Positions 3,001-32,142 of a stretch of 36,628 nucleotides of DNA are shown one piece after another (position 1 is the first letter of the stretch; each line of letters starts with the position of its first letter). Below the pieces are notes generated by a model. The model did no database searches. It was not told where the DNA came from and worked only from the letters and a program-made list of their open reading frames with translations. Where the stretch lies: positions 1-36,628 of the IMG/VR virus record IMGVR_UViG_3300030117_006907. One strand, written 5' to 3'. The translations under genes and the position numbers were made by a program. The stretch is from a virus.

Positions 3001-6000
3001 GTAATTGTAGTTGACACAATAAAATCATCATTGATAAAATTTTGATTAAACGATGAAAATGCAGTTCTATCATTTGCTTCAGAGTCCTTACAACGACGAC
3101 CTACAGGCGATGGATTCCAAGTATGTGCGGTATGGGTCGCATCAAGATGAATTTTCATGCTATTATCAGGGCCGGGATATACAGCATCTGTAGCATTTTG
3201 AAAGAATTGATTTGGGAATACAGGTATTTCGACCAAGGCACGTGTAGAGGCATATTGTGTACCCAATTGATAATCGTGTGTAACATCATTCATGGTTTGA
3301 AATAATCGGTCATTGACAGTTGTGCCGTCTTGACACAAATTCTCATCTAAAAATTTGTTTGTATTGTAAATGACTTGATTGATTTGAAATACTCCACTTT
3401 GATTAATTGTAGTGAGGTTGTTTTGTATACACCACGTAGAAAATTTATCAACGGCTTGTCCATCGCTCATCAAAAATTTTCTATCAGTTAATCCATCTGT
3501 GCTGTCAAACAAAAACGCAGAACCTGTTTTTGCGTAGTATTCAGCACTTGCACCATCAGCAAGATAGATGCGGCCTTGCTTTGGGAAACAATACGTACCC
3601 CACGATTTCATATCAGGTGAGTCATTGTTAAGCGGTGCAACAGATAACCAAGTTCCTTTTTCAGTTGCACCACTATCAATTTGTGAAACTGTAAATGTGG
3701 CATTAGTTGATTCTGTTACACCTGTATCATCGACCTTGTATTTATCATCCACAGCCCAATTGTAACCACCTGCTGTAATTGCAAACGCTGTAACTGCACC
3801 ACTACTCGTCGTGAGTGTGCCTGTTAGACCCACACCCGAACCACCGACATTGATTACACTACATGCTCTACCTGAACCCGCACTTGTATAACCCGCTCCA
3901 CCGTTTGCTAATGTAACACCCGTAACAACACCAAACGGTGTGTTCTTGACCGATACACCCTGTGCAGCGCAAGCATGTTGTGTTGACCACGGTAGTCGTG
4001 CCAAAGGCGACGGGTCCCACGTGGGCTTGGTATTCACCGCACCCTGACCCGGACCACCAAGAGATACGGTGACAACCGGAGCGTTTGGCTCAATCTCTTT
4101 GACAATTGTAGAATCAGGCGAGCCTTCACCGATGATATTCACATTCTGCGATACCATGCTGTCAGCCATGCTACGTGTTTGTACTGTAGTCACAAGACCA
4201 CTTTCACCTTCACTTTCAGTTACAGAGTGTATACGATGTTGTCCCATCATGTAAAGACATGAAACAATGTTTGGCTCATCCAAGTGTTCTATTCTTGCAC
4301 GTAAATGTTGTAATTGATTGGTGCGATTACGATTTGTAGGTTGGACACAAATTAAAATTTCATCATCAACGAGAGTTGGCATCTTCACATCAATAATATC
4401 AAACATCTCAAAAACATTTGAATTACCATTTGTAGAACCAATGTCAAACACACCTGTACCCGAAGATGTGCTACTTACTGCTCTTCTAAGTGTGGAACCG
4501 CTTATATTTGTTAATTCATCCACTTTTGTTTGCGCCGATGGTGTAACCACTAATTTATTGTACACGGATTCATGAGGAACATCGGTATGTGATGCCGCAA
4601 TAATTTGAGGTGTAGTATTTGGTTTTGCTGTAACATCATTAGGTGGTGTGTAATTGTTCGGGCATGTAGATTCATCTAATTCTGTATCTACTTCTAACCC
4701 ACCTGTATTGTCACCAACAAACATATTCGCTTCTTCGTATATATCAAATGTAGTAGATGATGGGGGTGATACACGTATATACCCACCCGCAGAAAACAAC
4801 GTTGTGTCTTTGGTTGAATCAGCAAGGTCGGATTCTATTACATCTAAAACAGTCGTAGTACCTGTAATTACAAAGTTACCCGCTGGTACTGTTTTTTCAA
4901 CCATCAACATAGGGAATGTTTTGCCCATTGATGCACCTGTTAAATCAATCGCATTGTAATGGATTTCTACATACGGTGCAAGATTGTGTGATGATTGTAG
5001 TGTAGGTACTTTGAGCAATGCCACACGACTAACAGATTCAGGTCGTAGGTGATATGACCGAGTATTTGCATCAATTGTATCAAATTCAGGTATTGGGCCT
5101 TTGAGTAAAAATGGCTTAATATCCATACCCGTTGAACCTATTGCAATCATTTCTCGTTTACTACTTGGTAATCCGTTATCGACAATTGTTCTCACTTCTT
5201 CAGAATTTACAAATGAGTTGACCAACATACTACTTTGTTCAGTATAAATGTCTACACGTGCGTTAATTGGAAGTGAAGATTTCAACCCCTTGTGTTGTGA
5301 GTCATACACTAATGTGCTAATATCAGATGATACTCCTATTGTTTGGTCGTGGTTTTCTGATATTGTGCGTGGTAATTGACGTAGATATTCATGCCCATCT
5401 ACATGACTAAACGTATGTCGTCCACTGTGACCTACTTGGTATAATTCATCTAATGTTGTGGGCCAACTTACTGCAAATGGGTTGTTAGGTGAATTCGATG
5501 TAGTTGCCATGTTTGATGAATATACCATACCATGTTGAGAAAATTGACTTTCATCAATTATCATTTGACCCGTTGTATCAATAACTTGCGATGCTATATG
5601 TGATGGTTGATACGGTTTACCTGTACCATTATCAACCAATAAATCGGCACTAAGCACAACAAAATAATCGTCAGTGTTTGCTGTACGGTCGTGAAGAACA
5701 CCACGTAATCCGATTGAGCCAAATGCCGATGTTGCCATATTGTTAAAATCAACGTGAATACTACTGACAGTCAAAACACCTGTCGCTGCGTTTATACTGT
5801 GTAAACGTACTCTTTCGGGTGGTTTTTGGTTTGGTTTTTGTGTATCACGATTAATTGCACCGGGGTTTATGAGAAGGTTGTAAGGTACGTGCGGCACTGA
5901 CATGGTAGAAGCGGTGCCGGGACTCGATACGTAGTTCACAACTTCATACTTACCCATGCTGTAAGGTGATGCTGTGAAGTCAACAGTTGAAGAAGTAAAT

Positions 6001-16211: not shown

Positions 16212-17384
16212 TCACTTAAGGTCACGGATTGAACCTTGACCTCCGAAGAAAGTAGTCCATAGTTCGCCCATTGAGCGGTACATTCCCTCTTGTCCGAGGC
16301 GGTTGATGGCGAATGGGTCGCCGGTTTCAATACCACTCTCAAAGTATTGGGTTGGAATTGCTGTACTGAAGTACAGGTAGTCAGTGTCAAGGAAGTACAT
16401 ACGGCTTAGACCGTCCTTTGTAACGTCCTTGCTTGGAATGATTGGAACACCGTTGTATGTTGCAACGATGAAACCAGCCTCAAGACCGGGTACACCCTTT
16501 ACACCGTTGTAGGTTGGGGTGACACGCTTCTCTTCCATGAATCGCTGTTGCGACTGTAGTAGTTGCTGTAGACGCATTAGTGTGTCATAGCCTGTTAGGA
16601 TAACCTTGGGGTTACCACCACGTTCCCATACTTGTTGGAACAAAGTGTCCAAGTGGTCAAGGGAAAGAGTTCGGCGGCTACCTGATGCACGGTCTGCACC
16701 ACAGTTGACTTCAGCGTTTGACCATGAGTTTGCACTTCGGTCGATGCTGTAGATGTCAAGGTCGTTTGCACCACAGTGGTCAGTACCAGCGCTTGCACCG
16801 GTTTCCATAGATGTTAGTCCACCGCTTGCACCACCGTCGTTTCCTGTAACACGGTCGAGTGATTCAAAGTCGTTACCGGCTACGGTTTCGGAATCCTCAA
16901 GAAGCATCTTGTTGATATGCTCTGCGTGGTGCTTGCCCATCTCTTCTTTGAGGACAGCACGAATGTCGCCAAGTCCATCGTCCTTGTCTGCCAAGAACAT
17001 TGCAGTTTCGCTCATGTCGAATGTGTGTACAATCGTCTTGGGCTTTGCTGCAATGTGCTGGAAGGTAGGCTTGGTTGTGTCAGGTAGGGTTGCGTTCTCT
17101 GCAACACCGCCACCAACAGTGAAGGAAGGTCGGGACGTAATAACACGCCATCCACTTCGCTCCCAAGGGCGCTTGGGTAGAATGCTGAAAGCATTGAATT
17201 CTTGGTTCAACTGTGACCAAACCTTGCGACCGTAAATCGCTTGGTAAGTACCACCGGTTGTGGACAGCATAGGGCTGTCAGCCTTGAGTAGTTCTGAACC
17301 ACTGTATGAGTAGCCCATTGCGTTACCTGCGCCGTAGAAGTAGCGCTCCATGTCTGTGATTGTTCGGATGTAATCTCTTGCCAT
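16212..17384 (-). CDS. Major capsid protein, HK97 fold (390 aa)
   Basis: It forms the icosahedral shell. The gene follows the prohead protease and has the best ribosome binding site of the window. The sequence follows the HK97 order: a helical/E-loop-like N-terminal part, the spine helix DDGLGDIRAVLKEEMGKHHA with EHINKMLL near residues 136-162, and an A-domain with GNPKVILTGYDTLMRLQQLL near 257-276, then VPGLEAGFIVATYNGVPIIP and LSRMYFLDTDYLYF. An insertion at residues 180-240 is Gly/Ser-rich and holds the only two cysteines I found, C204 and C228. The N-terminal SGSELLKADS (near residue 30) resembles the SELLK motif of the 34340-35920 product. No delta domain is fused; scaffold function probably lies in the protease gene. 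Confidence 0.9.
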   Translation of the reverse strand: MARDYIRTITDMERYFYGAGNAMGYSYSGSELLKADSPMLSTTGGTYQAIYGRKVWSQLNQEFNAFSILPKRPWERSGWRVITSRPSFTVGGGVAENATLPDTTKPTFQHIAAKPKTIVHTFDMSETAMFLADKDDGLGDIRAVLKEEMGKHHAEHINKMLLEDSETVAGNDFESLDRVTGNDGGASGGLTSMETGASAGTDHCGANDLDIYSIDRSANSWSNAEVNCGADRASGSRRTLSLDHLDTLFQQVWERGGNPKVILTGYDTLMRLQQLLQSQQRFMEEKRVTPTYNGVKGVPGLEAGFIVATYNGVPIIPSKDVTKDGLSRMYFLDTDYLYFSTAIPTQYFESGIETGDPFAINRLGQEGMYRSMGELWTTFFGGQGSIRDLK

Positions 17385-17420: not shown

Positions 17421-18806
17421 TCATGCACCTCGGAACGACTCGTCTGCAAGTCGGTGTACCTCATCCCAACTCATGTGGGCGAGGTCCTCGGTGGATGGAA
17501 TGGTTACAGTGCTTCGGGACTGTGACTTTGCAATCATAGTGCTTTCCGAAGAAATGTTGTCAATGCGCTCACCGAGTGCTTCGATAGCCTTGGTGATTTC
17601 TGCAAGTGGGCCGCGAGCATCGAATTGCTGCTGCTCTTGCTTCTGAATTGCTTGCTGAACTTCGTTCTCGTAGCGAGTGGCGAATTGTTGTTCAAGAGTG
17701 CCACGGAACTGCTGTTCTTCTGCGGCGGCCTTGTAAACTTCGTATGCGGCCTCAATGTCTGCATCAGATACCGTGTCAGCGGTCAAGTAACCCTTCTTTA
17801 CAGGTCCCAAAGCACCTGCTGGTTGCTTGCCACCACTTGCGGAAACTGCATTTGCAGCGCCTGTGGATGGTGAACCGGATTCTTGTCCACGGCCACGAAC
17901 TTGACCAGCGAAGTAGTCAGCACCATCAACAGCATCAGGGTTGTCGAAACCGCCGAGTTGTGCCTTGTTCAAGTCATCAAAGTGCTGTCGTGCTGCACCT
18001 GTGTCAACACCTGCACTCTTGAGAGTGTCTTCCATCCATGAAAGGTATTCAGCAGTAATAACATCACTGTATTCGTCACCCTTTTCCATGTTGTACATCT
18101 TCTCTTCTTTGTCATCATCTTCGTCTTTCTTTTCATCTTTTTCTTCAGACATAGGTTTGTCCTCCTTCTTGTCTTCCATGTGTTCACGAAGTTGAGGTGG
18201 CATACCCTTCTCCATTGAGTCGAGTCGTCCTTCAAGTCGTGTCAATACGTCGTTCATTTGTTCCATTACGTTATCATCTGTCATAGTGGTGTCCTCCTTC
18301 AATATACGAAAGGATGCTTCGGGATTAATCCCTTTTTCACAAATTGTAATTTCGTGAAGTTCAAGTTTACTGATTTCTTGGTAGTCGCCGTGTTCTCTGT
18401 CACTCTTGCGCATTCTCTTGAATGCTTGACCACCGATTGAGAAACCGGTAAGGTTACCTGCACGAATTTCTGAAGCCACTTCACGTGCCTTCTCAATATC
18501 GTTGCGTAGTTTGACAACAACAAACATACCTGTGTCATCCACTTCGGATTTCCACATACGTCCATCATTGTCTGTATAGGTGGGGATAACAGTCCCAACC
18601 TGAATGTTAGAATGAGCGAGTTGAACATTCGCATGTTCAGGGGCTGCCATGAACTTCTTGAAAGCGTCGTTCAATGCCCCGCGTGTAATAAGGTCGCCCT
18701 GCTTGTCAACCAATTCTACGCTTGCGTAACCCGCTACAACCAAATCGTTCCCGCTCTTCAGCAGGGTCAATTCAGTAGGATTGCGCATTCGCAATTGCCC
18801 AAGCAT
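17421..18806 (-). CDS. HK97-type prohead protease fused to a scaffold-like C-terminal domain (461 aa)
   Basis: The protease matures the prohead. Residues 1-170 show the family order: VAGYASVELVDKQGDLITRG, the catalytic His in VQLAHSNIQVGTV (about H65), Ser in NLTGFSIGGQAF (about S123) and Glu in LELHEITICEKGINPEA (about E152). After residue 175 comes an acidic linker (DEKDEKKDEDDDKEE) and a helical Gln/Ala/Glu-rich region ending in HMSWDEVHRLADESFRGA, which looks like a built-in scaffold. The fused length is about twice that of a protease alone. ATG 18806 is preferred (GGGGGT upstream) over TTG 18815; a later ATG at 18788 is possible. A hairpin covers the start. The last 17 residues share the motif SW[DS][DE]xHxxA with two other products of this cluster. 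Confidence 0.88.
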   Translation of the reverse strand: MLGQLRMRNPTELTLLKSGNDLVVAGYASVELVDKQGDLITRGALNDAFKKFMAAPEHANVQLAHSNIQVGTVIPTYTDNDGRMWKSEVDDTGMFVVVKLRNDIEKAREVASEIRAGNLTGFSIGGQAFKRMRKSDREHGDYQEISKLELHEITICEKGINPEASFRILKEDTTMTDDNVMEQMNDVLTRLEGRLDSMEKGMPPQLREHMEDKKEDKPMSEEKDEKKDEDDDKEEKMYNMEKGDEYSDVITAEYLSWMEDTLKSAGVDTGAARQHFDDLNKAQLGGFDNPDAVDGADYFAGQVRGRGQESGSPSTGAANAVSASGGKQPAGALGPVKKGYLTADTVSDADIEAAYEVYKAAAEEQQFRGTLEQQFATRYENEVQQAIQKQEQQQFDARGPLAEITKAIEALGERIDNISSESTMIAKSQSRSTVTIPSTEDLAHMSWDEVHRLADESFRGA

Positions 18807-18823
18807 GACCCCCAAAGGTCATG
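18804..18823 (-). promoter_or_regulatory. Perfect inverted repeat covering the protease start codon
   Basis: The plus strand has CATGACC, a six-base loop and GGTCATG: a perfect 7-bp stem. In the minus-strand transcript the second arm contains the protease AUG, and the G-rich loop edge overlaps its likely binding site. It could limit initiation until ribosomes from the upstream gene melt it, or bind a protein at DNA level. It holds no U-run and is unlikely to be a terminator. Confidence 0.55.
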
Positions 18824-18841
18824 TCATACTATATGAAGGTA

Positions 18842-18854
18842 GATTATGATAATC
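18842..18854. repeat. 13-base palindrome at the 3' end of the giant gene
   Basis: GATTATGATAATC is a perfect palindrome around a central base and includes the TAA of the 1,953-residue ORF. It is short and AT-rich, so chance is possible. It sits 18 bases from the hairpin at the protease start. Confidence 0.35.
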
Positions 18855-21800
18855 GGACTGTTGGTTGGTCATCCTCAATGTCAAAATCGACGGACTCCCC
18901 CTCATCTGACTCTAATTTTGCATGTGTAAGTCGATGTTTACCTTTTTTGCCAACCGAGGTGGGTTTTTCAGGGTCTTCACCGGGTCTTGGACGCATATCA
19001 TAATCAGGTAATGTTGAATCATCTCTCAATTTTGTAGGCCCACTTGGTGACTCTACGGGTGTTGCCATGTCAATTCCCAATCCTTTTGGTCCTGACCATG
19101 ACATTTTTTCTTTGGCTATTACATCTAATGCTCGCAAAGCAATTTCCAATGCTTTGACCATTCTCGGTTTGAGTAGAATGTTTCTTTCCTTTTGGTCAAG
19201 AATACCGGCTGATTCCCTTTCAATACGCTTAGGGTCAATTTTTTTGGGTACAACATTGACTTCATCATCCTTGTCCATTTTTTCCACATACCCGTTTAAC
19301 ATCAAAGATGCTATAGGACTCCAAAATGGTCGAAGACTTTCTGACAATTGGAATGAGTAGTTGCTCTTTTTCAAATCACCCATTACACATACAGGTTCGT
19401 TGAGATACCATGTGTCATTGAATTTGTTTACCTGATATTCTACAACATCCACGTCATTGAGTAAAATCTTGATTACATTCCCATCATAGTCAATACTGTG
19501 AGGTATGAGTACGGGAGCAAAACTCTTGGTCAACAATGACAATGATTCAGCACTCGCTGGTCCTTCACCTTGTCCTTCTTTGTCAATTGAAGTGAATTGC
19601 ACATTGTAAACATCACGACCACCTCGTGTTTTCTTTGCTACACCTGCTATCACACCTTCAACAATATCACCTTCAGCAAATGGTTTAGCAACGCGGTGTG
19701 CAGTACCCACATCCATGTAATGCTTACCTTTGTATTCAACAGCACGATTCCCAAGCCCTTCGGGTGTAAGAATAGGACCTGCACCTAATTGATATGTGAA
19801 TGGGCCTTTACCACGCTTGTCAAGAATAATGAAGTTCAATGTTTTACCTTCACGTAGAATCAACCACTTAGGATGACGCTTTTCTCCTTTCATGTATGTA
19901 GATTGGGCGTCACGAAGTAACACATATCCGTCACCTTTCAACTCATTAGCCGCTGTCTCCAACCCTTCTCTATCAGTTACACGTGTATTGAATGGACCGG
20001 GTATGGCAATTCCATCATAACTTTCTAACTGCCCACGGAGTATTTTCAATCGCTCGTTTGTTTTCATATCGGTGGTGTCAGTACCATCATACGATAATAT
20101 GTCAATGATATTGAATTCTTCATCATTAAGAATACCATCGACAATGTAATTTTTGTCACTTAACTTAGACGCAGCATCTCGTATCTTCTTTGGTACACCG
20201 CTCTTCTTACCATTTTCATCAAGGAACAATACATCATCATCTTTGACCAAAAGCAATCGCTTTCCTTCATACCATGTAGATACGACCCACGAATCACTGA
20301 AACCTCTGAACTCTTTCAAATCATCAAGTGAAAAGATACGATGCATAGGTCGAATCAAAGGAATCCAATCTTCCTTACTTGCTTTCATCAACATTACATC
20401 AGGATTCAACAAACCTTCTAAAAATTCTGTCATCTCACCTGTAGAAATACTCATTGGGTCTTCGGATTGCATACCCTGATAACCCACATCACGATATTGT
20501 TGACTTTGTTGTGGTGTGACACCGGGTTGGTCCATTACAGAATTTACAATTTCCTTACCATGTAAATCGTGTAGTGCATCTAAAGGCACAGAATGTAAAG
20601 GTGTGGGATTTACCTTATCACCAAATATCGGGTTACCGTCTACATCAAACTCAAAACCAAATGTTGGATTGGCTTCATATCCAAAGTCCATCCTACCTGC
20701 ATCGAACAAATCCCACACTGTACTAACGGCTTGAGGTGTGGGCGCAGAGATGGGTCTGTTCTTTCCCCAATCTGCTGTTTGAAGAATTTCTTCTTGTACA
20801 GGTATTTGTTCTACCTCACCTTCAGGTGAAAGCGCATCAGGTGTAAATGCAATCAAACTATCAAGATGATTTTTTGTATCTTTTGTGGGCCTCTTTAGAG
20901 ATGTAGATTTTAGTTGACCTCGCCCATGCACATCGGATGTAAATGTCATTAACCCGTGATTAGCCATATTTTCTCCAAACATTCCTTGATTCAAATACCG
21001 CATAATGCCACGAGGTAGTGAGTGAATCTCGTGTTTTTTCCAATTCGACACTCTACTTCCCGGTGTTGAGAATTGACTTGAAACAGACTTTTGCCCCTCA
21101 TCAAGTAAATTATGATAATCAGATTCATGATAATCAGTTGTATCAAAACCAGCAATTGAATCTGTATTACCGGATGTAATCATAGAATTCAAACTTGAAA
21201 CATGAAGTGGTATGTTCATGGCATTGGATTGGTCTATGACTTGACGCACATGTTCTTTATGTTCAGGTGTAGAAGATAATCCTAAAGCCTTTAATGCCTG
21301 ACTTACACTCATATTTCCATCAATCATTGTACCGTGGTCTTTGAGATAGTTTGCAATATCAGCATGATGTTTACCCTCACCCAAATCTTTGGTAGGTGAT
21401 TCCGCTACAGTTCTTGATACTTTGTAACCATAGTTGGTTTGCCCATGAGCGTTGTGTGGTGCTGAAAGTAACCAACGATTTGCCATGCGCATAAGTTGTG
21501 AGGAATTGTGTAAAAACTTCATTTTATTTTCAGGGTCGAACGCATCAGGTTGATTTTCTTCTACCATAGGTTTGAGAATTTTTGCAGCACCAATAATGGC
21601 TTCCATATCATTTTTGTAAAGTTCACCCTTTTGCTTGGCTCTTTCTTTCCACCAATTAGATTTCTTTGACGACTTTGGTTGAATGTTACTCGCTTGTTGT
21701 TGAAGTTGGTACAACTCACCTCTCAAATTTTGCATTTGGTCACGTATCATATTGATACCTTCAGGTGTTAATTCATTGTGAATAAATTCATCATCATCGA

Positions 21801-24705
21801 GTAATTGTTCTAATTTCATTAATTCTGTAGCAACCATTTCCTCTTGTCTTGTAGAAGGATAGTGTGAACCCATTCCAAGGATGTTTTGAATACCTTGAAT
21901 TTGTTCTCGCTTGTGCCTTTCAACAGCCTCTTCTTGAGTTTCTGAATCAATCGTTTGTGGGTCAATCACAGCAATATCGCTCATCACCGCATTTAATCGA
22001 GAACGGTCATCACTCGACAGTGCAGAAAAATCACCTTGATTCAAATATTCAGCAATAACTGCTGGATTTCTTGTATTCAATAAACGCGATACAACACCAA
22101 TAGCATACTGTTGGTCCATCTCTTTTTCTGAAGTAATCATATCTTCAGGTTTCACTGTTTTGGCTGATGTTTTTATTGTAGGTGACCAACCCACAAAATC
22201 AAACCATTGTGATGGTACATCACCTGTACTCACAGGTGCGCCTGTTGATTGAAGTGAATTCAAGTCATGAACTTTCTTTTTTTGTGGATTTTCAGGTGGT
22301 AGAATATGTCCCAAAATGGTGGCACGTAAATGTGCATCAACGGCTTGACGTTGTGAAATTTTGTCAGAAGCACCTTCACCATATCCTTCGGGGTTAGAGG
22401 CGAATGTATATTCTGTTATAGGATGACCACCTACAGGTGCATCCATAGAACTACCATGAATTTCTTGTTGTCTTTCTGCATTGGTTCTATTCATTGCCCA
22501 ATTTGTGTATTCAGGCGACCTCGCTGATAGATGGTCTGTGATATTATTTTTGAATGACGAACCTTGGCGTGAAAGAGTGCCGTCGCTATTGTGTACAGCC
22601 CTTGTAACATCATGAGCATTAATATGGTATTCCGGTGGCATTGCAGTAAGCAATTTTTTCCACAAAGTTTTGCCACTTTCAGGGTCCAACTCTTCTCCTA
22701 CATGCATGGGTGCTACGTAAGGTGCTACGTGACCTACAATGTTCATTAGATTTTTATTGACAATCAACCCACCCGCATCATCAATCTCTCCAAATGGTGA
22801 TTTTTTGGTCATGGGGTCCATAAGCATGTGATGAATAAACTCCATGTATGTGGGTAAAGCGCGTCCCACACCCCCCATTTGTGCGAATGGTTTCCACCAA
22901 TAATGCGCGTTACCAATTGTATGTTCACCACTCGGCACTGTCTCAAATAAATCATCATCGTGGTATTTAGGATTGGGACCAAATCTTGCTTTTTTGTGAG
23001 CCAAAGCATTTCGTATATCTTTACCAAGAGCAGCCTGACCTGAATATTGTGTAGCCTCCTTTACCAAATCTTCTAAGTCATCTTTTGGAATAATTGGGTT
23101 TTCCAACTCCCCGTATATTGGATGGTCAGGCATATGTTCACGTGTTTCAGGATGATACCCTGCGAGATAATACAAATCTTCCATCGAAAGATTGTTTCTC
23201 ATTGGGTCAATAACACCGTCAATTGCTCGGTGTTTTTTTACAGCCTCACGTATTTCTTCAATCGAGTGTTTTTCAGGCAACCCCTTCTCTTTCATAGATT
23301 TGGTGTGCATACCAAACCGTGGTAAAATATTGAACTTGTCAGAAATATCATTTCCTTCTTCATCTGTTTTTTCTTCAATTTCAGGATGCAAGTTTAGTTG
23401 TTCAAAAATCATATCCGCAATAGACGAGTTATCATCATATCTTGGCATGTAAGACATTTGATTTAATGCGTGTTGAAGAAAACGATTCTCTCCGCCATGA
23501 AAATCATTCTCATTGCTTTCAGGTCGGTGATGTGCATTCGGCGCATGTACAGAGTGAGAACGCGCCCACCAATTCATTTCAGGTGTTACACGTTCCATAA
23601 AGTTGTAAACGAAACGAGCCATTGGTAATATTGTACCATCGGGTAAAGTGACTTTTTGCGCATCTTGTGATACACTACCTTTCTCCATCATGTGGTCGTA
23701 TACGGCTGTTCTCTCTTCGGGAGAAAGCCATTCAAGACCCATGTTGTAACCAAACCAACCCAATCCATGACCATGATGTACACCTTTACCTTCGTACGAG
23801 GGTTTGTTGGCATCTTCCATTTCTTGGAATACATCTTCGTATGAGAATTCTTTTTCAGGAGGTGCTTCAAATGTAGTGTCATCACTGTCCCATTCATCGG
23901 CTCTTGCTTCAAAATGTTCTTCTCGCAGTTCAGGATTATCGTCGTTTTTCCCATGCCCATTGTCTAATTTCCAACGTTGAAAATCTCTTTCGTACAAATC
24001 GTGATTACTTTGTACTGTTGTCCCATGAAGTGTAAGAGGGCCGCCAAAATTGTAGACACGTTCATTGCTATCTTTGTCTTTCTCACCCATGACAACAGGA
24101 TTATTTTTTGACGCATGATGATTGTGCCACTTCATTTCATTTTCAGCCTGACGTTCCGATACTGATTTTTCAGTAGGTGAGGGTTTCAAATAATAATCTT
24201 TGAGAAGATGCTTCAACATCGTATCGCCCGATACAGCATGACGGCGAAGTAATGGGTGAAAATTTTCGTGAAATGGATGTGTCTTTGCGTAATGATGATT
24301 TGCATTTGAAGTAACATCAGGCCATGCGGCGTGTCTTACACCTTTGTTTGCAGAAGATGTATGTCTATCTACCCACGGGTGGTTAGAAGGTTCGCTACTC
24401 AACCCTTCCATACCATACAGATAAGCAGCAGTTTGTGTCCCACCTTTACCACCAACTTCAGCAGCAGATGCTCCTTCATCTTCTGCTTCTTCTTCGTACC
24501 CTTCATTTTTCCAAATGTAGTAATGCATCAATCTACGTGACATTGTTTTGCAAATTTGAGAAAGTGAATCTTCGGGTGTATAATCAAGATTATCGTAGGC
24601 GAGCAAATATTCTGCTGCACTACGGTCTAAATCATAGCCATCGTCTAATGACTTAAGCAAATCATCTCTTCTTAGAATAAACAGAGATGTGGGGTCGAGT
24701 AACAC
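18844..24705 (-). CDS. Giant His-rich structural-locus protein (1,953 aa) containing an inactive DNA-ligase-like domain
   Basis: GTG 24705 follows GGTGATTTTGT. I recognise no family for the first 1,440 residues, which hold no obvious transmembrane run or signal peptide. They are strikingly His-rich (NHHYAKTHPFHENFHPLLRR, GVHHGHGLGWFGYN, HAPNAHHRPESNENDFHGG) and later helical (QMQNLRGELYQLQQQASNIQ). Residues 1444-1733 match the nucleotidyltransferase plus OB-fold of ATP-dependent DNA ligases, but the key residues are changed. Motif I KxDGxR is WYEGKR, motif III VDGE is VDGI, motif IV EG is DG, and motif V ends in LILR instead of KIK. The domain is therefore probably non-catalytic. Near residue 1868 is KMSWSG, related to the motif in the protease C-terminus. 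The last 80 residues are Pro-rich and acidic. Its place between portal and protease suggests a virion protein, which is inference. Confidence 0.8.
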   Translation of the reverse strand: MLLDPTSLFILRRDDLLKSLDDGYDLDRSAAEYLLAYDNLDYTPEDSLSQICKTMSRRLMHYYIWKNEGYEEEAEDEGASAAEVGGKGGTQTAAYLYGMEGLSSEPSNHPWVDRHTSSANKGVRHAAWPDVTSNANHHYAKTHPFHENFHPLLRRHAVSGDTMLKHLLKDYYLKPSPTEKSVSERQAENEMKWHNHHASKNNPVVMGEKDKDSNERVYNFGGPLTLHGTTVQSNHDLYERDFQRWKLDNGHGKNDDNPELREEHFEARADEWDSDDTTFEAPPEKEFSYEDVFQEMEDANKPSYEGKGVHHGHGLGWFGYNMGLEWLSPEERTAVYDHMMEKGSVSQDAQKVTLPDGTILPMARFVYNFMERVTPEMNWWARSHSVHAPNAHHRPESNENDFHGGENRFLQHALNQMSYMPRYDDNSSIADMIFEQLNLHPEIEEKTDEEGNDISDKFNILPRFGMHTKSMKEKGLPEKHSIEEIREAVKKHRAIDGVIDPMRNNLSMEDLYYLAGYHPETREHMPDHPIYGELENPIIPKDDLEDLVKEATQYSGQAALGKDIRNALAHKKARFGPNPKYHDDDLFETVPSGEHTIGNAHYWWKPFAQMGGVGRALPTYMEFIHHMLMDPMTKKSPFGEIDDAGGLIVNKNLMNIVGHVAPYVAPMHVGEELDPESGKTLWKKLLTAMPPEYHINAHDVTRAVHNSDGTLSRQGSSFKNNITDHLSARSPEYTNWAMNRTNAERQQEIHGSSMDAPVGGHPITEYTFASNPEGYGEGASDKISQRQAVDAHLRATILGHILPPENPQKKKVHDLNSLQSTGAPVSTGDVPSQWFDFVGWSPTIKTSAKTVKPEDMITSEKEMDQQYAIGVVSRLLNTRNPAVIAEYLNQGDFSALSSDDRSRLNAVMSDIAVIDPQTIDSETQEEAVERHKREQIQGIQNILGMGSHYPSTRQEEMVATELMKLEQLLDDDEFIHNELTPEGINMIRDQMQNLRGELYQLQQQASNIQPKSSKKSNWWKERAKQKGELYKNDMEAIIGAAKILKPMVEENQPDAFDPENKMKFLHNSSQLMRMANRWLLSAPHNAHGQTNYGYKVSRTVAESPTKDLGEGKHHADIANYLKDHGTMIDGNMSVSQALKALGLSSTPEHKEHVRQVIDQSNAMNIPLHVSSLNSMITSGNTDSIAGFDTTDYHESDYHNLLDEGQKSVSSQFSTPGSRVSNWKKHEIHSLPRGIMRYLNQGMFGENMANHGLMTFTSDVHGRGQLKSTSLKRPTKDTKNHLDSLIAFTPDALSPEGEVEQIPVQEEILQTADWGKNRPISAPTPQAVSTVWDLFDAGRMDFGYEANPTFGFEFDVDGNPIFGDKVNPTPLHSVPLDALHDLHGKEIVNSVMDQPGVTPQQSQQYRDVGYQGMQSEDPMSISTGEMTEFLEGLLNPDVMLMKASKEDWIPLIRPMHRIFSLDDLKEFRGFSDSWVVSTWYEGKRLLLVKDDDVLFLDENGKKSGVPKKIRDAASKLSDKNYIVDGILNDEEFNIIDILSYDGTDTTDMKTNERLKILRGQLESYDGIAIPGPFNTRVTDREGLETAANELKGDGYVLLRDAQSTYMKGEKRHPKWLILREGKTLNFIILDKRGKGPFTYQLGAGPILTPEGLGNRAVEYKGKHYMDVGTAHRVAKPFAEGDIVEGVIAGVAKKTRGGRDVYNVQFTSIDKEGQGEGPASAESLSLLTKSFAPVLIPHSIDYDGNVIKILLNDVDVVEYQVNKFNDTWYLNEPVCVMGDLKKSNYSFQLSESLRPFWSPIASLMLNGYVEKMDKDDEVNVVPKKIDPKRIERESAGILDQKERNILLKPRMVKALEIALRALDVIAKEKMSWSGPKGLGIDMATPVESPSGPTKLRDDSTLPDYDMRPRPGEDPEKPTSVGKKGKHRLTHAKLESDEGESVDFDIEDDQPTVRLS
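19509..20376 (-). other. Degenerate ATP-dependent DNA ligase-like region (nucleotidyltransferase + OB fold)
   Basis: Within the giant ORF, residues 1444-1733 keep the ligase scaffold in order: STWYEGKRLLL (motif I position, about 1478-1483), NYIVDGIL (III, about 1520-1526), FNIIDILSYDG with NERLKILRGQL (IIIa region, about 1531), GDGYVLLRDAQSTYMKGEKR (IV, about 1591), KWLILREGKTLNFIILDKRG (V, about 1613) and an OB-like AEGDIVEGVIAGV. The nucleotide-accepting Lys is Trp, coded by TGG, and the motif III Glu is Ile. Confidence 0.75.
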
Positions 24706-26191: not shown

Positions 26192-27979
26192 TTAGGCCCC
26201 TCTTGGCCTCCGAGCATCCATTAATGCTTGTTGATTACGCATTCCTTGAGTGGGTGGTAATCCTCTTTGTTGCACCGATGTGACAGGTGAACCAGCGCCC
26301 GGTGAACCTCTTTGTTGTGGTCGCGCTGGACTTCTCGGAGTGCGTATACCCATACCTTCACCACCCGGTTGCGAAGGTGGCATCATTGGTCTTTGACCGA
26401 TACCCGGTTGAGGCGGCATCATCGGCATACCCGGTGGCATAGCCCTTGGCATTTGTCCACCCATAGCACCCGGTGGCATACCCGGTGGCATCATTGGGGG
26501 AGCGCCTCCGGGTGGCATACCTCCGGGGGGTGGGGCGCCACCCGGCTGCGCGGGGGTTTCAGGAGGTGGTTGAGTGTAAGTAAAGCGAATGTCACGGTCA
26601 CCTTGTTCTAACAATTCAGGTTTGTAACCCAACATCATCATTCGTTGTGCTAAATTAACTTCCATCTCATCACGGCGTAGTCGTGTAATTTCATCTTCTT
26701 CTTCATTCGGATAGAGAGTTAATTTCCAATCTGTAATGCCCATATTTTTCAGTAGCCTTGGGAATAACAATTGTGTGTAGACTTTTTGCCCAAATTCTAC
26801 AGCACGATTGGTTACAAGAATTTGAAGTCCTTCGTTATTCAAACCACCGGACTTACCATTGTCAACCATAAAAATACTCGATACACCAAAGAAGGCTGCG
26901 ATACGATTACGTATTTCATCACGCACAGCAATATACTGCATCTCTTCTAATGTGTCCATGAACTTAACCCAATTCACACCACCTCTACCACTACTCGACT
27001 CAATACCGACTTTGGGTATGTAGTGTGGGTCACGTTCCATTTTCTCATCAACAGATTTCCAAAATGATTTCATTGATTCCAAGTTGTCTGTTGTAACTGA
27101 AATAATACCCTTTGGTGAACGTCGTTTTTGGTATGCTGTATACATGTAATTGTCCATTGCTGTCAACGTCATGGCTTGTCGCCACATTGTGTTCACAGGT
27201 GATGTACCATACAATTTCGATGGTTGATACTTACTAATGTGTATTACTTCATCCTTAACGTAGTATTGTGTTTTACCACTACCTGCCATATTGACGTAAT
27301 GGACTTCATGCATTTTACTACCACAAATTTCACAATTTCCTTCTTGACCGGGACTGTGTACTTGGTCACGGTGAACTAAACATGTTTTATATCGCCCACC
27401 ACGTACTCCACGTTTATCCGCTACAATACGCATAAACACAGGGTCACCACGAACAATGTCTTTGATACGATAAAATGACACTTCATTTGTTTCAGGGTCA
27501 ATGTAGTATTCTTTGACTAAAACAAGGAATGCGTCATCAACAATTTCCAAGTCTCTTTCAATTTCATGAATGACTTGCAAGAATGTTTGTTCCATACTAT
27601 TTTCTTGTTTGAGTAACCACTTTGCATATGTGGTTTGGTCGGAGTCAGGTTTACGTGTTTCACCACCACACGAAGGACATTCTTGTACTTCATGTTGGAA
27701 TTCTTCATCACATTCTACACATTTACTTTCAAATTTCTTTTCCCAATAATACCCACGACGGAAAATTTCTTGTCCAAGTTTTGATATTACAGTACGAAGA
27801 ATTAGATTTTCTTTTGACACCGCATACAATGCAGGGATAGTAATACCCTGCGCCATAATGGGTTCTTGTATACCACTTGACCAAAGTGGCATTGTTGGTG
27901 TAGGTGTTTGACGCCTCTTGAATGGATTTCTCAAAGCCGAAAGGAAACGTGAAATTCGACCTTCTTCTTCATCAGCCAT
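26192..27979 (-). CDS. Portal protein with zinc-binding insertions and a Pro/Gly/Met-rich tail (595 aa)
   Basis: The portal forms the dodecameric DNA gate between head and tail. Family features include the N-terminal ALYAVSKENLILRTVISKLG and RRGYYWEKKF, a clip/stem region, IRNRIAAFFGVSSIFMVDNG, and the long helix after TLYPNEEEDEITRLRRDEME. Two unusual insertions could bind zinc: C87xxC90 with C101xxC104, and C200xxH203 with C216xxC219. After residue 470 the tail is low complexity (PPGGMPPGG, PPGMPPG and QQRG units), likely disordered. GGAGGGA precedes ATG 27979, two bases from the upstream stop. The LAGLIDADG fusion gene and terminase lie upstream, as in standard packaging modules. Confidence 0.85.
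   Translation of the reverse strand: MADEEEGRISRFLSALRNPFKRRQTPTPTMPLWSSGIQEPIMAQGITIPALYAVSKENLILRTVISKLGQEIFRRGYYWEKKFESKCVECDEEFQHEVQECPSCGGETRKPDSDQTTYAKWLLKQENSMEQTFLQVIHEIERDLEIVDDAFLVLVKEYYIDPETNEVSFYRIKDIVRGDPVFMRIVADKRGVRGGRYKTCLVHRDQVHSPGQEGNCEICGSKMHEVHYVNMAGSGKTQYYVKDEVIHISKYQPSKLYGTSPVNTMWRQAMTLTAMDNYMYTAYQKRRSPKGIISVTTDNLESMKSFWKSVDEKMERDPHYIPKVGIESSSGRGGVNWVKFMDTLEEMQYIAVRDEIRNRIAAFFGVSSIFMVDNGKSGGLNNEGLQILVTNRAVEFGQKVYTQLLFPRLLKNMGITDWKLTLYPNEEEDEITRLRRDEMEVNLAQRMMMLGYKPELLEQGDRDIRFTYTQPPPETPAQPGGAPPPGGMPPGGAPPMMPPGMPPGAMGGQMPRAMPPGMPMMPPQPGIGQRPMMPPSQPGGEGMGIRTPRSPARPQQRGSPGAGSPVTSVQQRGLPPTQGMRNQQALMDARRPRGA
26195..26548 (-). repeat. Low-complexity Pro/Gly/Met-rich coding repeat of the portal C-terminus
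   Basis: Several imperfect units (PPGGMPPGG, PPGMPPG, MPPGMPMMPPQPG) repeat here, and the DNA is clearly more GC-rich than its surroundings. The boundaries are approximate. It is probably a flexible tail of the portal; copy number may vary between relatives. Confidence 0.65.
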
Positions 27980-27980
27980 T

Positions 27981-29300
27981 CTACAATCCCTCCGCGTACT
28001 TTGTCAAATCTTCGGCCCCAATGCCCCAATCTTGTAATAGCGCAGATGCTTTTCTCTTATCATCTTTCCAATTTTCATAAGTGACCAAACGCTTCAACTC
28101 ACTTTTTCTTGCAATATCTGTATTATCAATATATTCTAACACCGCTTTTGCTTGCAATCCTTTCATTTTCAAATGTGGTAAAATACCTTTCAAGAGTTTT
28201 TGTATATCGGCTTTTGAGTTAAACATTAAACGATGTGTGGTACGATTACTTTTCTTACTGATTCTTTGGTCAAGAGCAAGGTTACCACACCCAAGGGCTT
28301 TGTGCATTTGTTCACAATGTGTTCGGCCTCGTGTACCTGTGGCTACAAATGATGCCCGTGGCTCTCCACGTTCAGTGATGAAAATACTCCCATCAGCGTC
28401 AAGGAATCCCGCTGCATATGACCAAACATCTTTGATAATCAATCCCGTATGGTCCATTTTTACAAATGTCCCTCTTTGCGCTCCTTTGTAAATATCTAAT
28501 TCTTCACCATACATTTTCAGAAGTTTACTCATAGACGCAGGTGTAATCTCTTCTTTTTGAGTATTTTTCAATACACCTGCCTCAAGTCCATTTTCTACAA
28601 TTCTTCGACTCGACAATGGACCTTTTGTTTGCAATTCACTCGCAGCAAATTCTAATGCATTCTGTTGATGTTTAGCCAAATTATCTGTTTGCCTAAGTGT
28701 TGTGCGCCACATTTTCTTGGCTGTGCTACGGTCTGACATTGCTGTGGCCCATGCTTGTTCTTCTTCAGGACCCCATGCACTTTCATGTGTGTCAAGTTGT
28801 TTTAACGTGGATTCTGCTTTTTCATACATTTCACATGCCTGTATGAGTGATGAAGAACGTGTTTCTCCAAATTTACGTAACGATTTCAAATTGGTGTCTG
28901 ACAATCCGAGATTACGAATAGCATAATCATGTTCGTCAGACCATGACAATGATTTGATAGTGGCTTGTGTTTCCAACGCTTTGAGAGTACGTATGTCTTC
29001 AATCATCCCATCAATTTCATCTGTTTGAGATTTGTCATGTCGTCGCATTTTACGAAGCGAACGTATCAAATCATCAGCAGAACGACCGATTGAACTTTCT
29101 AACCATCCATCACCATTCGGTGGAAAACTAAATGACTTGTAAACATTTGATGTTGAAAGAGATGATTTGGTTTCCATAGGCATATCTTCAGATGAAAAAT
29201 TAGGATGTTGCGAAAGTGCCGTAAGTACGCTTTTGGTCATAATATCGTCAACCTCTACAGGTATGTCGTACTCATCACCAATCAAAGCAGACCCCCACAT
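27981..29300 (-). CDS. Helical structural-locus protein with C-terminal LAGLIDADG endonuclease-like domain
   Basis: ATG 29300 follows GGGTGGT; TTG 29312, with GATGAGGA upstream, would add four residues. The first 280 residues are helical and charged with no known family, and include KSLSWSDEHDYAIRNLGLSD, which matches the SW-x-x-x-H motif of the protease tail. Residues about 295-400 form a single LAGLIDADG unit: SYAAGFLDADGSIFITERG, with the catalytic Asp (about D303 in this numbering) present, then ASFVATGTRGRTHCEQMHKA, and IQKLLKGILPHLKMKGLQAK. A single motif implies a homodimer if it acts as an endonuclease. It is not inside an intein: no splice motifs are seen and both terminase and portal are intact. 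The gene lies between terminase and portal, an unusual location for such a fusion. Either a mobile domain was captured, or it is a domesticated DNA-binding module. Confidence 0.75.
   Translation of the reverse strand: MWGSALIGDEYDIPVEVDDIMTKSVLTALSQHPNFSSEDMPMETKSSLSTSNVYKSFSFPPNGDGWLESSIGRSADDLIRSLRKMRRHDKSQTDEIDGMIEDIRTLKALETQATIKSLSWSDEHDYAIRNLGLSDTNLKSLRKFGETRSSSLIQACEMYEKAESTLKQLDTHESAWGPEEEQAWATAMSDRSTAKKMWRTTLRQTDNLAKHQQNALEFAASELQTKGPLSSRRIVENGLEAGVLKNTQKEEITPASMSKLLKMYGEELDIYKGAQRGTFVKMDHTGLIIKDVWSYAAGFLDADGSIFITERGEPRASFVATGTRGRTHCEQMHKALGCGNLALDQRISKKSNRTTHRLMFNSKADIQKLLKGILPHLKMKGLQAKAVLEYIDNTDIARKSELKRLVTYENWKDDKRKASALLQDWGIGAEDLTKYAEGL
28113..28430 (-). other. LAGLIDADG homing endonuclease-like domain region
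   Basis: The region encodes AAGFLDADGSIFI, with the acidic catalytic position intact, and the following alpha-beta-beta-alpha pattern ending near GLQAKAVLEYIDNT. A single copy of the motif is present. Confidence 0.75.
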
Positions 29301-29331
29301 ATGACCACCCAAGTGTCCTCATCTTATAGGG

Positions 29332-29472
29332 TTAGTCCCTGACCAAAAATTCCCATGCTTTTTTCATTGCTTTTTTGTCAGGCTTCATTGTATCTTCAGG
29401 CTTTTTTGGAGCATGAGGTGTAACCGCAATTACAATTGCCACGCCTTTCTTTTTCTTCTTGTTATCTTTCAT
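29332..29472 (-). CDS. Tiny basic protein between terminase and the LAGLIDADG fusion gene (46 aa)
   Basis: The ATG at 29472 overlaps the terminase stop as ATGA, and GGATGATACC precedes it. The product begins with a Lys-rich run (KDNKKKKKG), then a short hydrophobic strand VAIVIAVTP, then PKKPEDTMKPDKKAMKKAWE, ending FLVRD. The end resembles the MxxAWxxLLK pattern found twice in the 34340-35920 product. It fills the gap between the two larger genes with almost no spacing. Small basic proteins after a terminase gene are common in tailed phages, but no function can be given. Confidence 0.6.
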   Translation of the reverse strand: MKDNKKKKKGVAIVIAVTPHAPKKPEDTMKPDKKAMKKAWEFLVRD

Positions 29473-30968
29473 GGTATCATCCATCCATCGTTAGTTGATT
29501 TTTTCTTACCACCGGCAAACCAATTGTCAAATCCGGGGAGGTAGTCATCAAGTAGCATCACGCTTCCCTTGAATTCCTTTGTAGCCCAATTTGCCAAAGC
29601 AAGGGCCATAGCCAAGTCGTCATGCACACCAACGGACTCAAGCCGCCCATTTTTCTGCATTCCGAATCGTGTGAGTTCTTCTTCCAACTTGTGTGTAAAC
29701 TTCTTGCTACGCTCATCACCATAGGGGGTTTTGATTTGACCTTGCTCAAATGCCAATAGAAGTGACATGAACAAACTTTCCTTTTTTGTGCGCGTGGTCA
29801 TGAAAGTGCGAATTGGAATATCTTCACGAAGTTCTTTCAATTCAGCCTCAAACATTCTTTGAAAATTGTTACCTTCAAGTTCGATAAGGTCAGGTTGAAA
29901 ACGACTATTGAGAAGAACCATCTGTCGCTTTTGTGCCATAGAGTTCATTCCTTTTTCGTGAACAACATTGACAATCTGTTTGATGTTTGCTTCACCCGGC
30001 GGCAACCGCATTGTCATCATCGCTGTATAGTCAGCATTTTTGTCAGAAGCAATTGCAGGGTCCCAACCAATAAAGTGTTGACCAAATACACCTGAACGCT
30101 CGCCTTCTTCATTGTAATCTGATTCGGCTTTATCGAGCAATACCAATTCAGGGTCACGCGCAGTTTCAAGAAGTGCCATCGGGAACATACTCGCTACATC
30201 GTGAATCGGCTCACACAAATACTCACGAGTAAATTGCATGGCTGGCATCGACATACGACGTTGTTCCAATGCTTCTATATCCCAACGTTCAGGCCAAAGC
30301 GGTTCTCCTTCTTTGTTAATCGCGGGATATGTTTCAACAGTGTACATGTCTTTCTGTTCCAATTCAGCATACAAGTCATTGTAACTAAACGGTGTACCGA
30401 CCATCATCAAACGGGCTGTGTGGTGAAGTACAGGAAGAAGAACAGCATAGAACCAATCAGCGGCTTTCTGAAGTTCACTACCTGTGGTTCCCCAAAGAAT
30501 ATCGTCACAGACTACAACATCGGGGTGGAAACCACGTGTTGCACCACCGACCGACTTTGCCATCATACGAGAACCATTGGTAAAATCAAAATATGATTTT
30601 GCCCAAGGACGACCTTCAGGTTTCAAGTGATGCAAACACTCGGTGTTTTCGATGATATTCCGAATCATTCTCATGTGTTCAAGCGTCTGTTCCAAAGAAT
30701 GTGAAAAAATCATAATGTGTGTATTGGGATTAAATGCTGCAATCCACAAAGCATAGGACATGAAGAATACAGATTTACCGTGGTCACGACTCGCTTTAAC
30801 ACAATAGTATCGGTTTTCTTCCAATCCTTTTTTCCACATCTCATGGTGATTGTTGAAATGTACATCATAACCGAGGTCAGCAACTTCACTGAAAAAATAC
30901 TTGAAAGACTTCGCAGACATTTTACGGTCCATCTCAAGGATGAACTGTTGCATATCTCCGTCTGTCAT
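29469..30968 (-). CDS. terL: Terminase large subunit (TerL), ATPase plus nuclease (499 aa)
   Basis: TerL translocates DNA into the prohead and cuts it. The ATPase part has a Walker A-like ASRDHGKS (about 59-66), a Walker B VVVCDDI (about 151-157) and a coupling motif GTPF (about 191-194). The RNase H-like nuclease has D303 in GWDPA, an acidic residue in LIELEGNNFQ (about E363) and the final Asp pair in VGVHDDLAMALALA. GAGATGATAC precedes ATG 30968. The length is normal for the family and the ORF carries no intein or gap. It is followed by a tiny ORF, the LAGLIDADG fusion protein and the portal. A small terminase subunit was not identified in this window. Confidence 0.93.
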   Translation of the reverse strand: MTDGDMQQFILEMDRKMSAKSFKYFFSEVADLGYDVHFNNHHEMWKKGLEENRYYCVKASRDHGKSVFFMSYALWIAAFNPNTHIMIFSHSLEQTLEHMRMIRNIIENTECLHHLKPEGRPWAKSYFDFTNGSRMMAKSVGGATRGFHPDVVVCDDILWGTTGSELQKAADWFYAVLLPVLHHTARLMMVGTPFSYNDLYAELEQKDMYTVETYPAINKEGEPLWPERWDIEALEQRRMSMPAMQFTREYLCEPIHDVASMFPMALLETARDPELVLLDKAESDYNEEGERSGVFGQHFIGWDPAIASDKNADYTAMMTMRLPPGEANIKQIVNVVHEKGMNSMAQKRQMVLLNSRFQPDLIELEGNNFQRMFEAELKELREDIPIRTFMTTRTKKESLFMSLLLAFEQGQIKTPYGDERSKKFTHKLEEELTRFGMQKNGRLESVGVHDDLAMALALANWATKEFKGSVMLLDDYLPGFDNWFAGGKKKSTNDGWMIP

Positions 30969-30972
30969 TGTA

Positions 30973-32142
30973 TCATCTCATTTTCAAGAACACTTGCGAA
31001 GCAAAATGCCCCACTTCGTGTGGTGTCATATCTTTGAGTACGTCACTGTAAACATTCATGAAAGCAGACACGAATGATTTGTCAAAAATATCTCTCGCTT
31101 TTCTTCTCTTTGAAAATTTAGGGTCAACAGGTATTTCTGAAGCCGGTCCAAATGTAATTTCATTTGTTATTGGGTCTTGATACGAGTCATCTATTCCAAG
31201 AACATTGGCTTTTTCTTGAACTGCTGCCGCTGCTTGTTCCGGTGAAAATACCATACCCGGTGGTAATTCTTCACTATACTTCCCTAAAGTTCTCCGTGCT
31301 TCTTTAACAGGTTGTGGAGCAAAAATTCGATTCATTTCTTCATCAGAAATCGGTCCATCGGGATATGACGGATATGACGGTGGTGTAGATTGATTACTAA
31401 ATCTTTGGTCGTATAATGTTGTAAACCCTGCTTTGGCTGCTGCGGCTGCTTGTTCCGGTGTAAGAGTGGATGATGGTGGTGTAGATGTAACGGGTAAAAC
31501 AGGTGCTGGCGTTGCAGGTGAAGGTGCCGCTGCCGCTGGTGCTGCTGGTGCAGAGGCTACAGGTGCAGCGGGTTGTGGTGGTGGAGTTGTAGCCTGTCCT
31601 CCTTGTACAGCAGTTTGTAAAATATTATCATGATTTACGGGTGTAGCCGATGCTGCTGCTTGAGCGGCGTTAGAGGCTTCAGGTGTTAAATTAGGATGAG
31701 AGTCTTCTTGCACCACCTTCTCTTCAACTTGTTCTTCTGCATCTTTTGGGTCAGCAGCAGCGTATGGATTTAATGACCCTGAAGGGTCTAATGTAGCGTA
31801 TGTTGCACCTGCTGTAACAGGTGTGCTAATCACACTTCCTAAACTACCACTTCTACTTGCACTTGCCAAATTATCTGCTGCGGATAATCCAGCACCTAAT
31901 GCTGCTAAACCTTTACCAGCAACACTTGCAAGCGCTCTTGTTTTTGGCATTGCTCCCCGTTCTACAGGACCACCGGGTGCATCAGGTGCAAATTTACCTG
32001 TACCTCTAAATTGATGGTATAAATCTTCTATAGTGGGTCTTTTCCCCGATGGCACCATTACTTGTAAAGGCGACGAACCACCACCGGGCGTAACACCAAT
32101 TTCTGCACCCTCTTGTTTTAGTACGGCAACAGGCTTCTTCAT
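30973..32142 (-). CDS. Ala/Pro-rich protein of unknown function upstream of terminase
   Basis: ATG 32142 overlaps the previous stop (TGATG), with GGAGTTGAAG upstream; GTG 32145 is the alternative. The N-terminus (MKKPVAVLKQEGAEIGVTPG) leads to a small hydrophobic Ala/Gly region near residues 70-90 (VAGKGLAALGAGLSAADNLA), then a long Ala/Pro/Thr-rich linker (residues 150-240). An acidic/helical C-terminus ends in MTPHEVGHFASQVFLKMR. The unit SPEQAAAA (or TPEQAAAA) occurs twice, near residues 230 and 305. The mix of a hydrophobic patch and long disordered linker is seen in some injected or internal virion proteins, but no family can be named. Confidence 0.6.
   Translation of the reverse strand: MKKPVAVLKQEGAEIGVTPGGGSSPLQVMVPSGKRPTIEDLYHQFRGTGKFAPDAPGGPVERGAMPKTRALASVAGKGLAALGAGLSAADNLASASRSGSLGSVISTPVTAGATYATLDPSGSLNPYAAADPKDAEEQVEEKVVQEDSHPNLTPEASNAAQAAASATPVNHDNILQTAVQGGQATTPPPQPAAPVASAPAAPAAAAPSPATPAPVLPVTSTPPSSTLTPEQAAAAAKAGFTTLYDQRFSNQSTPPSYPSYPDGPISDEEMNRIFAPQPVKEARRTLGKYSEELPPGMVFSPEQAAAAVQEKANVLGIDDSYQDPITNEITFGPASEIPVDPKFSKRRKARDIFDKSFVSAFMNVYSDVLKDMTPHEVGHFASQVFLKMR
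31221..31462 (-). repeat. Two copies of an Ala-rich PEQAAAA coding unit
   Basis: The plus strand has nearly identical stretches around 31221-31246 and 31437-31462 (both containing gctgcttgttccggtg). They encode SPEQAAAAV and TPEQAAAAA in the product ending at 30973, separated by about 70 residues. Confidence 0.6.

What the first reader, a model, noticed from the sequence alone, without database searches (positions are those of the whole stretch)
19509..20376. Catalytically dead DNA-ligase fold buried in a 1,953-residue structural-locus protein
The order and spacing of nucleotidyltransferase motifs I, III, IIIa, IV, V and a following OB-like segment match ATP-dependent DNA ligases when read against archaeal ligase sequences from memory. 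The adenylated Lys (KxDGxR) is Trp (WYEGKR), the motif III Glu is Ile, motif IV Glu is Asp, and motif V Lys residues are lost. The scaffold residues (DILSYDG, SxYxxGxR, WLILR) remain. This suggests selection for DNA-end or nick binding without sealing, for example a virion protein holding genome ends, or a decoy. The reading frame is intact, so it is not a decaying gene.
Basis: partly seen in the sequence, partly recalled or inferred. Interest (0 to 1): 0.85.

Follow-up and report, generated by a model that had tools for sequence, protein, structure and literature searches.

The report
Dead ligase fold in archaeal virus
A giant protein in the capsid-building gene cluster of ocean viruses that infect archaea carries a DNA-joining-enzyme fold that has lost its chemistry in every relative examined yet is its most tightly conserved part, so the "DNA ligase" credited to these viruses is probably in most of them a structural or binding module and not an enzyme.

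Summary
Residues ~1441-1735 of the 1,953-aa protein (18844-24705, -) are a DNA-ligase nucleotidyltransferase plus OB domain. All 40 relatives scanned hit Pfam DNA_ligase_A_M (best 2e-7), and a template-free AlphaFold model matches archaeal DNA ligase 4eq5 (Foldseek E 1.4e-11). The window looks like a magrovirus fragment (tailed viruses of marine Poseidoniales archaea). The gene lies between portal and prohead protease.

Inactivation is family-wide. In ~108 distinct relatives none has Lys at the motif I nucleophile, none the motif III Glu, none the nick-phosphate Arg. Yet the domain is the most conserved part of the protein (pairwise dN/dS 0.03-0.07).

Of 13 related contigs of 90-116 kb, all with DNA polymerase B, 12 show no other ATP-dependent ligase. 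Published magrovirus "ATP-dependent DNA ligase" genes appear, at least in part, to be this domain: one paper places that gene beside the prohead protease.

Most likely: a core head-module protein using a fossil ligase fold as a non-catalytic docking/binding module. The partner is unknown.

The parts
18844..24705 (-). 1,953-aa giant head-module protein carrying the pseudo-ligase
   Evidence: homologue found in 79 of 82 loci (L001-L082), the other three being cut short of it
22156..24423 (-). N-terminal region (res. 95-850), confidently predicted mostly helical fold with no solved-structure match
   Evidence: AF2 pTM 0.76; no PDB Foldseek match, best E 1.1
19846..20385 (-). dead nucleotidyltransferase domain, res. 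1441-1620
   Evidence: most conserved part of the protein
20257..20274 (-). motif I remnant WYEGKR (res. 1478-1483); Lys site is Trp, Arg retained
   Evidence: 0/108 Lys, 107/108 Arg in the family
20131..20142 (-). motif III remnant VDGI (res. 1522-1525); Glu site is Ile
   Evidence: 0/109 Glu in the family
20095..20109 (-). motif IIIa remnant IIDIL (res. 1533-1537)
   Evidence: Asp in 108/109; Phe kept in only 28
19864..19932 (-). motif IV remnant and following block DGYVLLRDAQSTYMKGEKRHPKW (res. 1592-1614), near-invariant R-D-x-x-S-T-Y-M-x-G-E-x-x-H-P-K-W
19852..19866 (-). motif V remnant WLILR (res. 1614-1618); both Lys sites changed
19501..19845 (-). ligase-type OB domain, res. 1621-1735; absent from one clade
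19033..19053 (-). ESPSGPT C-terminal peptide motif (res. 1885-1891), invariant in aligned full-length homologues
17421..18815 (-). prohead (head maturation) protease
   Evidence: PHROG head maturation protease, E 1.4e-13
16212..17384 (-). HK97-type major capsid protein
   Evidence: PHROG major head protein, E 1.6e-59
26192..27979 (-). portal protein
   Evidence: PHROG portal, E 1.5e-62
29469..30968 (-). terminase large subunit
   Evidence: PHROG TerL, E 1e-62

Best explanation
The region is the exapted remnant of an ATP-dependent DNA ligase (NTase plus OB) in the C-terminal part of a ~1,950-aa core morphogenesis protein of magroviruses. Shown by computation: ligase homology and fold, loss of catalytic residues across the family, strong purifying selection, position between portal and prohead protease. 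Inferred: the protein is made with the head proteins, acts at or inside the procapsid, and uses the NTase fold as a non-catalytic docking/binding module; the face around the former AMP pocket (motif I Arg, motif III/IIIa Asp, RDxxSTYMxGExxHPKW) now holds a fixed partner, most likely another head protein, less likely a nucleotide or packaged DNA. It does not adenylylate itself and does not seal DNA.
For: Fold. Dead in all relatives: 0/108 motif I Lys, 0/109 motif III Glu, motif V first Lys 0/109. Under selection: dN/dS 0.025-0.065 for the NTase domain against 0.13-0.29 for residues 1-1440; highest conservation in the protein. Head module and near-universal: 79 of 82 loci, the rest truncated, with conserved gene order. 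Not a DNA clamp: net acidic NTase, phosphate-binding Arg lost, OB domain missing in one 100/99-supported clade while NTase and C-tail persist.
Against: No virion proteomics exists, so the protein is not shown to be in the particle. The partner is unknown and a protein-docking role is argued by exclusion. One clade has a Lys one residue before the motif I Lys site (SKWYDGKR), so residual chemistry there is not strictly excluded. Model confidence is good for the NTase domain but low for domain arrangement (pTM 0.44).
Confidence: 0.55

Rival explanations
1. Nick or DNA-end binding without sealing: the dead ligase holds genome ends in the head or during injection.
For: Ligase fold with OB domain in the window clade; motif I Arg kept in 107/108; head-module location.
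Against: Arg that binds the nick 5'-phosphate lost in all relatives and motif V lysines lost; NTase net charge median -2.8 per 100 aa; OB missing in 40 sequences of one clade.
Confidence: 0.13
2. Virion-packaged polyvalent effector or decoy: the giant protein is injected and the dead ligase binds or competes with a host repair or defence factor.
For: Druskaviruses, the nearest cultured relatives by MCP, carry a multi-domain 'zeta toxin' protein at the same place; polyvalent proteins are typical of portal-terminase phages (PMC5512222).
Against: Polyvalent effectors vary in domain make-up; here one architecture is conserved in all relatives and no effector domain is detected in the remaining 1,440 residues.
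Confidence: 0.15
3. Nucleotide or capped-end sensor: the pocket still binds a nucleotide non-covalently, as the m3G-cap-binding domain of snurportin-1 does on a related fold.
For: Pfam snurportin cap-binding model hits 14/40 members weakly (best 0.0049); near-invariant residues cluster at the former pocket.
Against: The adenine-stacking Phe of motif IIIa is not kept in most (28/109); pocket lysines gone; no cap-like ligand is known in these archaea.
Confidence: 0.1
4. It is still an active ligase with a shifted nucleophile, as published annotation implies.
For: 12 of 13 large related contigs show no other ATP-dependent ligase; one clade has Lys one position earlier.
Against: The shifted Lys exists only in that clade; motif III Glu and the first motif V Lys are absent there too.
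Confidence: 0.04

Closest known systems
ATP-dependent DNA ligase, catalytic core (Pfam PF01068 with OB domain; nearest solved 4eq5, Thermococcus sibiricus)
   Same: NTase plus OB fold, order of motif remnants I-III-IIIa-IV-V, SxYxxG and W landmarks.
   Different: Catalytic Lys, motif III Glu, motif V Lys and the phosphate Arg lost; C-terminal part of a ~1,950-aa head-module protein; no recognised N-terminal ligase DNA-binding domain; OB missing in one clade.
'ATP-dependent DNA ligase' of magroviruses (Aoguangviridae, Apasviridae; PMC10768690, PMC12999244, PMC10160649)
   Same: In a group A magrovirus that gene abuts the prohead protease (PMC7318539), as this one does, so it is probably this protein.
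   Different: Published as a replication enzyme; the sequence shows a dead domain in the head module. One related contig (G017) does have a separate intact-looking ligase.
Snurportin-1 m3G-cap-binding domain
   Same: A nucleotidyltransferase-type fold without the catalytic Lys used for binding only (own knowledge; weak Pfam hits in 14/40).
   Different: Eukaryotic import adaptor binding an RNA cap; no ligase-type OB; only remote sequence similarity.
Druskaviridae (HVTV-1, HCTV-1) 'zeta toxin' multidomain protein
   Same: Large protein encoded between the head-assembly (MuF-like) gene and the protease in viruses with a related MCP.
   Different: No detectable homology to the magrovirus protein; zeta-type kinase domain instead of a ligase fold.

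Membership tests
ATP-dependent DNA ligase (enzyme) | NTase fold followed by OB domain | tested here: met
   Foldseek over ~360 columns to archaeal ligases, E 1.4e-11; OB missing in one clade
ATP-dependent DNA ligase (enzyme) | Motif I KxDG nucleophilic lysine | tested here: not met
   0 of 108 family members
ATP-dependent DNA ligase (enzyme) | Motif III Glu and motif V Lys pair | tested here: not met
   Glu 0/109; first Lys 0/109; second Lys 5/109
ATP-dependent DNA ligase (enzyme) | Adenylylation and nick sealing | not testable with these tools
   needs biochemistry
ATP-dependent DNA ligase superfamily (descent) | Sequence similarity to PF01068 | tested here: met
   40/40 members hit, best 2e-7; many individual copies, including the window's, below the curated cut-off
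Polyvalent virion effector | Several recognisable effector domains, variable architecture | tested here: not met
   only the ligase remnant is recognised; architecture conserved
Polyvalent virion effector | Packaged and injected | not testable with these tools
   no cultured magrovirus, no proteomics
Magrovirus (order Magrovirales) membership of the window | Related head module plus 90-110 kb genomes with virus-encoded PolB | tested here: inconclusive
   MCP and pseudo-ligase relatives lie on 90-116 kb contigs with PolB and the MCP is druskavirus-like, as published for magroviruses; no named magrovirus record was available for direct comparison

The most novel reading that the evidence does not exclude
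A DNA-ligase fold has been turned into an essential non-enzymatic component of virion assembly in a whole order of marine archaeal viruses, and most of these viruses encode no ligase of their own and so depend on the host's ligase, contrary to the published picture of a self-sufficient replisome.
Probability: 0.4. Interest if true: 0.75.

Novelty: new variant of a known kind. Interest (0 to 1): 0.58.

Why it matters
It corrects a standing functional claim: the "ATP-dependent DNA ligase" listed among magrovirus replication genes is, in 12 of 13 large contigs examined, represented only by this dead domain in a head-module protein, so ligation is probably supplied by the host. It is also a clean, family-wide case of an enzyme fold kept under strong selection after its chemistry was lost, in an abundant virus group of the surface ocean, and it gives concrete, testable residues (R1483, RDxxSTYMxGExxHPKW, ESPxGPT).

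Tried and rejected
Recent duplication of a viral ligase: the separate ligase of G017 barely matches the family (hhalign probability 0.3%, HMMER -0.4 bits), so that origin is unsupported; the nearest solved sequences are archaeal cellular ligases. Homology to druskavirus giant proteins: none. Cellular relatives: two genome-contig scans found none. Relatives in annotated phage records: none at E<=1, one chance-level hit at E 9. Known domain in the N-terminal 95-850: no PDB fold match, no Pfam family in more than a few members. RNA-ligase and NAD-ligase families in nine of the larger contigs: none. Decaying pseudogene: rejected by dN/dS and intact frames. Named magrovirus records ON649702 and OR863078 and Philosof et al. 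2017 were not held.

Full report
WHAT IS THERE. The ORF 18844-24705 on the minus strand is open for 1,953 codons. The window is a 36,628-base virus record. Gene order on the minus strand is terminase large subunit, HNH protein, portal, three small proteins, the giant protein, head maturation protease, major capsid protein, then tail genes. The MCP has 510 relatives in IMG/VR, the best on contigs up to 108 kb, and its nearest annotated relatives are haloarchaeal druskaviruses (36% identity). That, with PolB on all large contigs, fits the published description of magroviruses, tailed viruses of marine Poseidoniales (PMC10768690, PMC12999244). I could not compare directly with a named magrovirus genome.

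THE LIGASE FOLD IS REAL. Pfam DNA_ligase_A_M is the only Pfam hit of the whole protein (E 0.023). The only PDB sequence hits of residues 1400-1953 are three archaeal DNA ligases. Forty homologous regions were aligned (A2); all 40 hit DNA_ligase_A_M, best 2e-7, and the profile's best PDB hit is the Thermococcus sibiricus ligase 4eq5 (1e-5). A template-free AlphaFold2 model has pLDDT mostly 80-90 in the NTase domain (mean 67, pTM 0.44 over 476 residues because the tail and domain arrangement are uncertain). Foldseek against the PDB gives DNA ligases and capping enzymes throughout the top 50, 4eq5 first at E 1.4e-11, over about 360 columns, i.e. NTase plus OB. TM-scores are low (0.3-0.44), which I attribute to the flexible two-domain arrangement and the disordered tail. 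Viral structures give the same answer.

IT IS DEAD IN EVERY RELATIVE. I extracted 109 distinct homologous regions from the fetched loci; one is a probable frameshifted fragment (L069). At the motif I nucleophile none of 108 has Lys (W 34, M 19, L 17, H 15, Y 11, Q 8, F 3, P 1). The motif III Glu is absent in all 109. The arginine of the 'SR' step after motif I, which in ligases holds the nick 5'-phosphate (own knowledge of Chlorella virus and human ligase structures), is absent in all. The first motif V Lys is absent in all and the second present in 5. Kept almost without exception are the motif I Arg (107/108), the motif III and IIIa Asp, and the block R-D-x-x-S-T-Y-M-x-G-E-x-x-H-P-K-W after motif IV. 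One large clade has a Lys one residue before the nucleophile site (SKWYDGKR), but it also lacks the motif III Glu and the first motif V Lys.

IT IS UNDER STRONG SELECTION. Residues 1441-1640 are the most conserved part of the giant protein. Pairwise dN/dS of the NTase domain is 0.025-0.065 against 0.13-0.29 for residues 1-1440 (Nei-Gojobori; synonymous sites are near saturation in the more distant pairs; the closer pairs L003/L004, L053/L061 and L028/L023 agree). Of 82 loci (window plus relatives) 79 show the domain; the other three contigs are cut short of the gene.

THE OB DOMAIN IS DISPENSABLE. In 40 sequences the ligase OB domain (window residues ~1621-1735) is missing while the NTase domain and the C-terminal tail remain in frame. 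They form one group on the NTase tree with 100/99 support. Loss, not gain, is the simpler reading because true ligases have the OB domain. Since a ligase needs the OB domain to engage DNA (PMC8455567), the conserved function is unlikely to be a ligase-like nick clamp. The NTase domain is also net acidic (median -2.8 charges per 100 residues).

CONSEQUENCE FOR PUBLISHED ANNOTATION. Thirteen contigs of 90-116 kb were searched with DNA_ligase_A_M. All carry PolB. In 12 the only match is the giant protein; one (G017) has a separate 379-aa ligase with intact motifs KFDGVR, FDGELY, EGAMVR. NAD-ligase and RNA-ligase models found nothing in the nine contigs tested. Papers state that almost all magroviruses encode a DNA ligase (PMC10160649) and list ATP-dependent DNA ligase as a replisome gene (PMC10768690, PMC12999244). 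[quoted passage not shown] I infer that the published ligase is, at least there, this dead domain; I could not open those annotations. The homology itself is thus not new; the inactivation and the head-module context appear to be, as far as the papers at hand show.

HOW IT MOST LIKELY WORKS. The protein is a conserved core gene of the head module, so it most likely acts in head assembly, portal-vertex formation or inside the capsid (inferred). The ligase remnant is best read as a non-catalytic docking or binding module whose former active-site face now binds a fixed partner. I favour a head protein (by exclusion), with nucleotide binding, DNA-end binding or an injected decoy as rivals. The rest of the protein gives no further clue: residues 95-850 fold confidently in prediction (pTM 0.76) but match nothing in the PDB.

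LIMITS. No particle proteomics, no cultured magrovirus. Genome completeness of the large contigs is judged from size and presence of PolB only. Absence of a second ligase rests on profile searches. The dN/dS values are pairwise estimates, not a codon model.

Noticed in passing
window 22156-24423 (residues 95-850 of the giant): Confidently predicted, mostly helical globular region (pTM 0.76) with conserved HPFHExxHPLLR and SHxHDLYxRDF motifs and no match among solved structures; possibly a new fold.
   Followed up: partly
window 19033-19053; L083 (HVTV-1 protease, residues ~603-609); L107 (HCTV-1 gp111): The giant's C-terminus carries an invariant ESPxGPT peptide; the druskavirus protease tails carry DSPSGPT and NSPDGPS. 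May be a shared head docking or cleavage motif; the comparison is post hoc.
   Followed up: partly
L120 contig (G017) 12920-13522, locus L170: One related 102-kb contig encodes a separate 379-aa ATP ligase with intact motifs, together with the dead one.
   Followed up: yes
L053, L061, L067, L077 and relatives: One clade has Lys one residue upstream of the motif I nucleophile position (SKWYDGKR); worth an adenylylation test.
   Followed up: partly
BFVD entry A0A516LT18: Unnamed 827-aa viral protein is the best viral structural match (E 3.9e-23, 22% identity over the whole 476-residue query); perhaps a shorter relative or a fragment.
   Followed up: no
window 27981-29312: 443-aa protein with a C-terminal HNH endonuclease match lies between terminase and portal.
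   Followed up: no
window 3-6905: 2,301-aa tail-end protein running off the window, with a weak laminin-G/concanavalin-like match, perhaps a receptor-binding fibre.
   Followed up: no
window 30973-34343: 390- and 733-aa proteins just upstream of the terminase without any significant Pfam or PHROG match.
   Followed up: no
L083 6539-10480 (HVTV-1 gp115) and L107 3744-7376: Druskavirus 'zeta toxin' proteins sit at the equivalent place; HVTV-1 gp115 repeats a WVSDPTEQAPNRWT linker and by eye contains an ADP-ribosyltransferase-like segment.
   Followed up: partly
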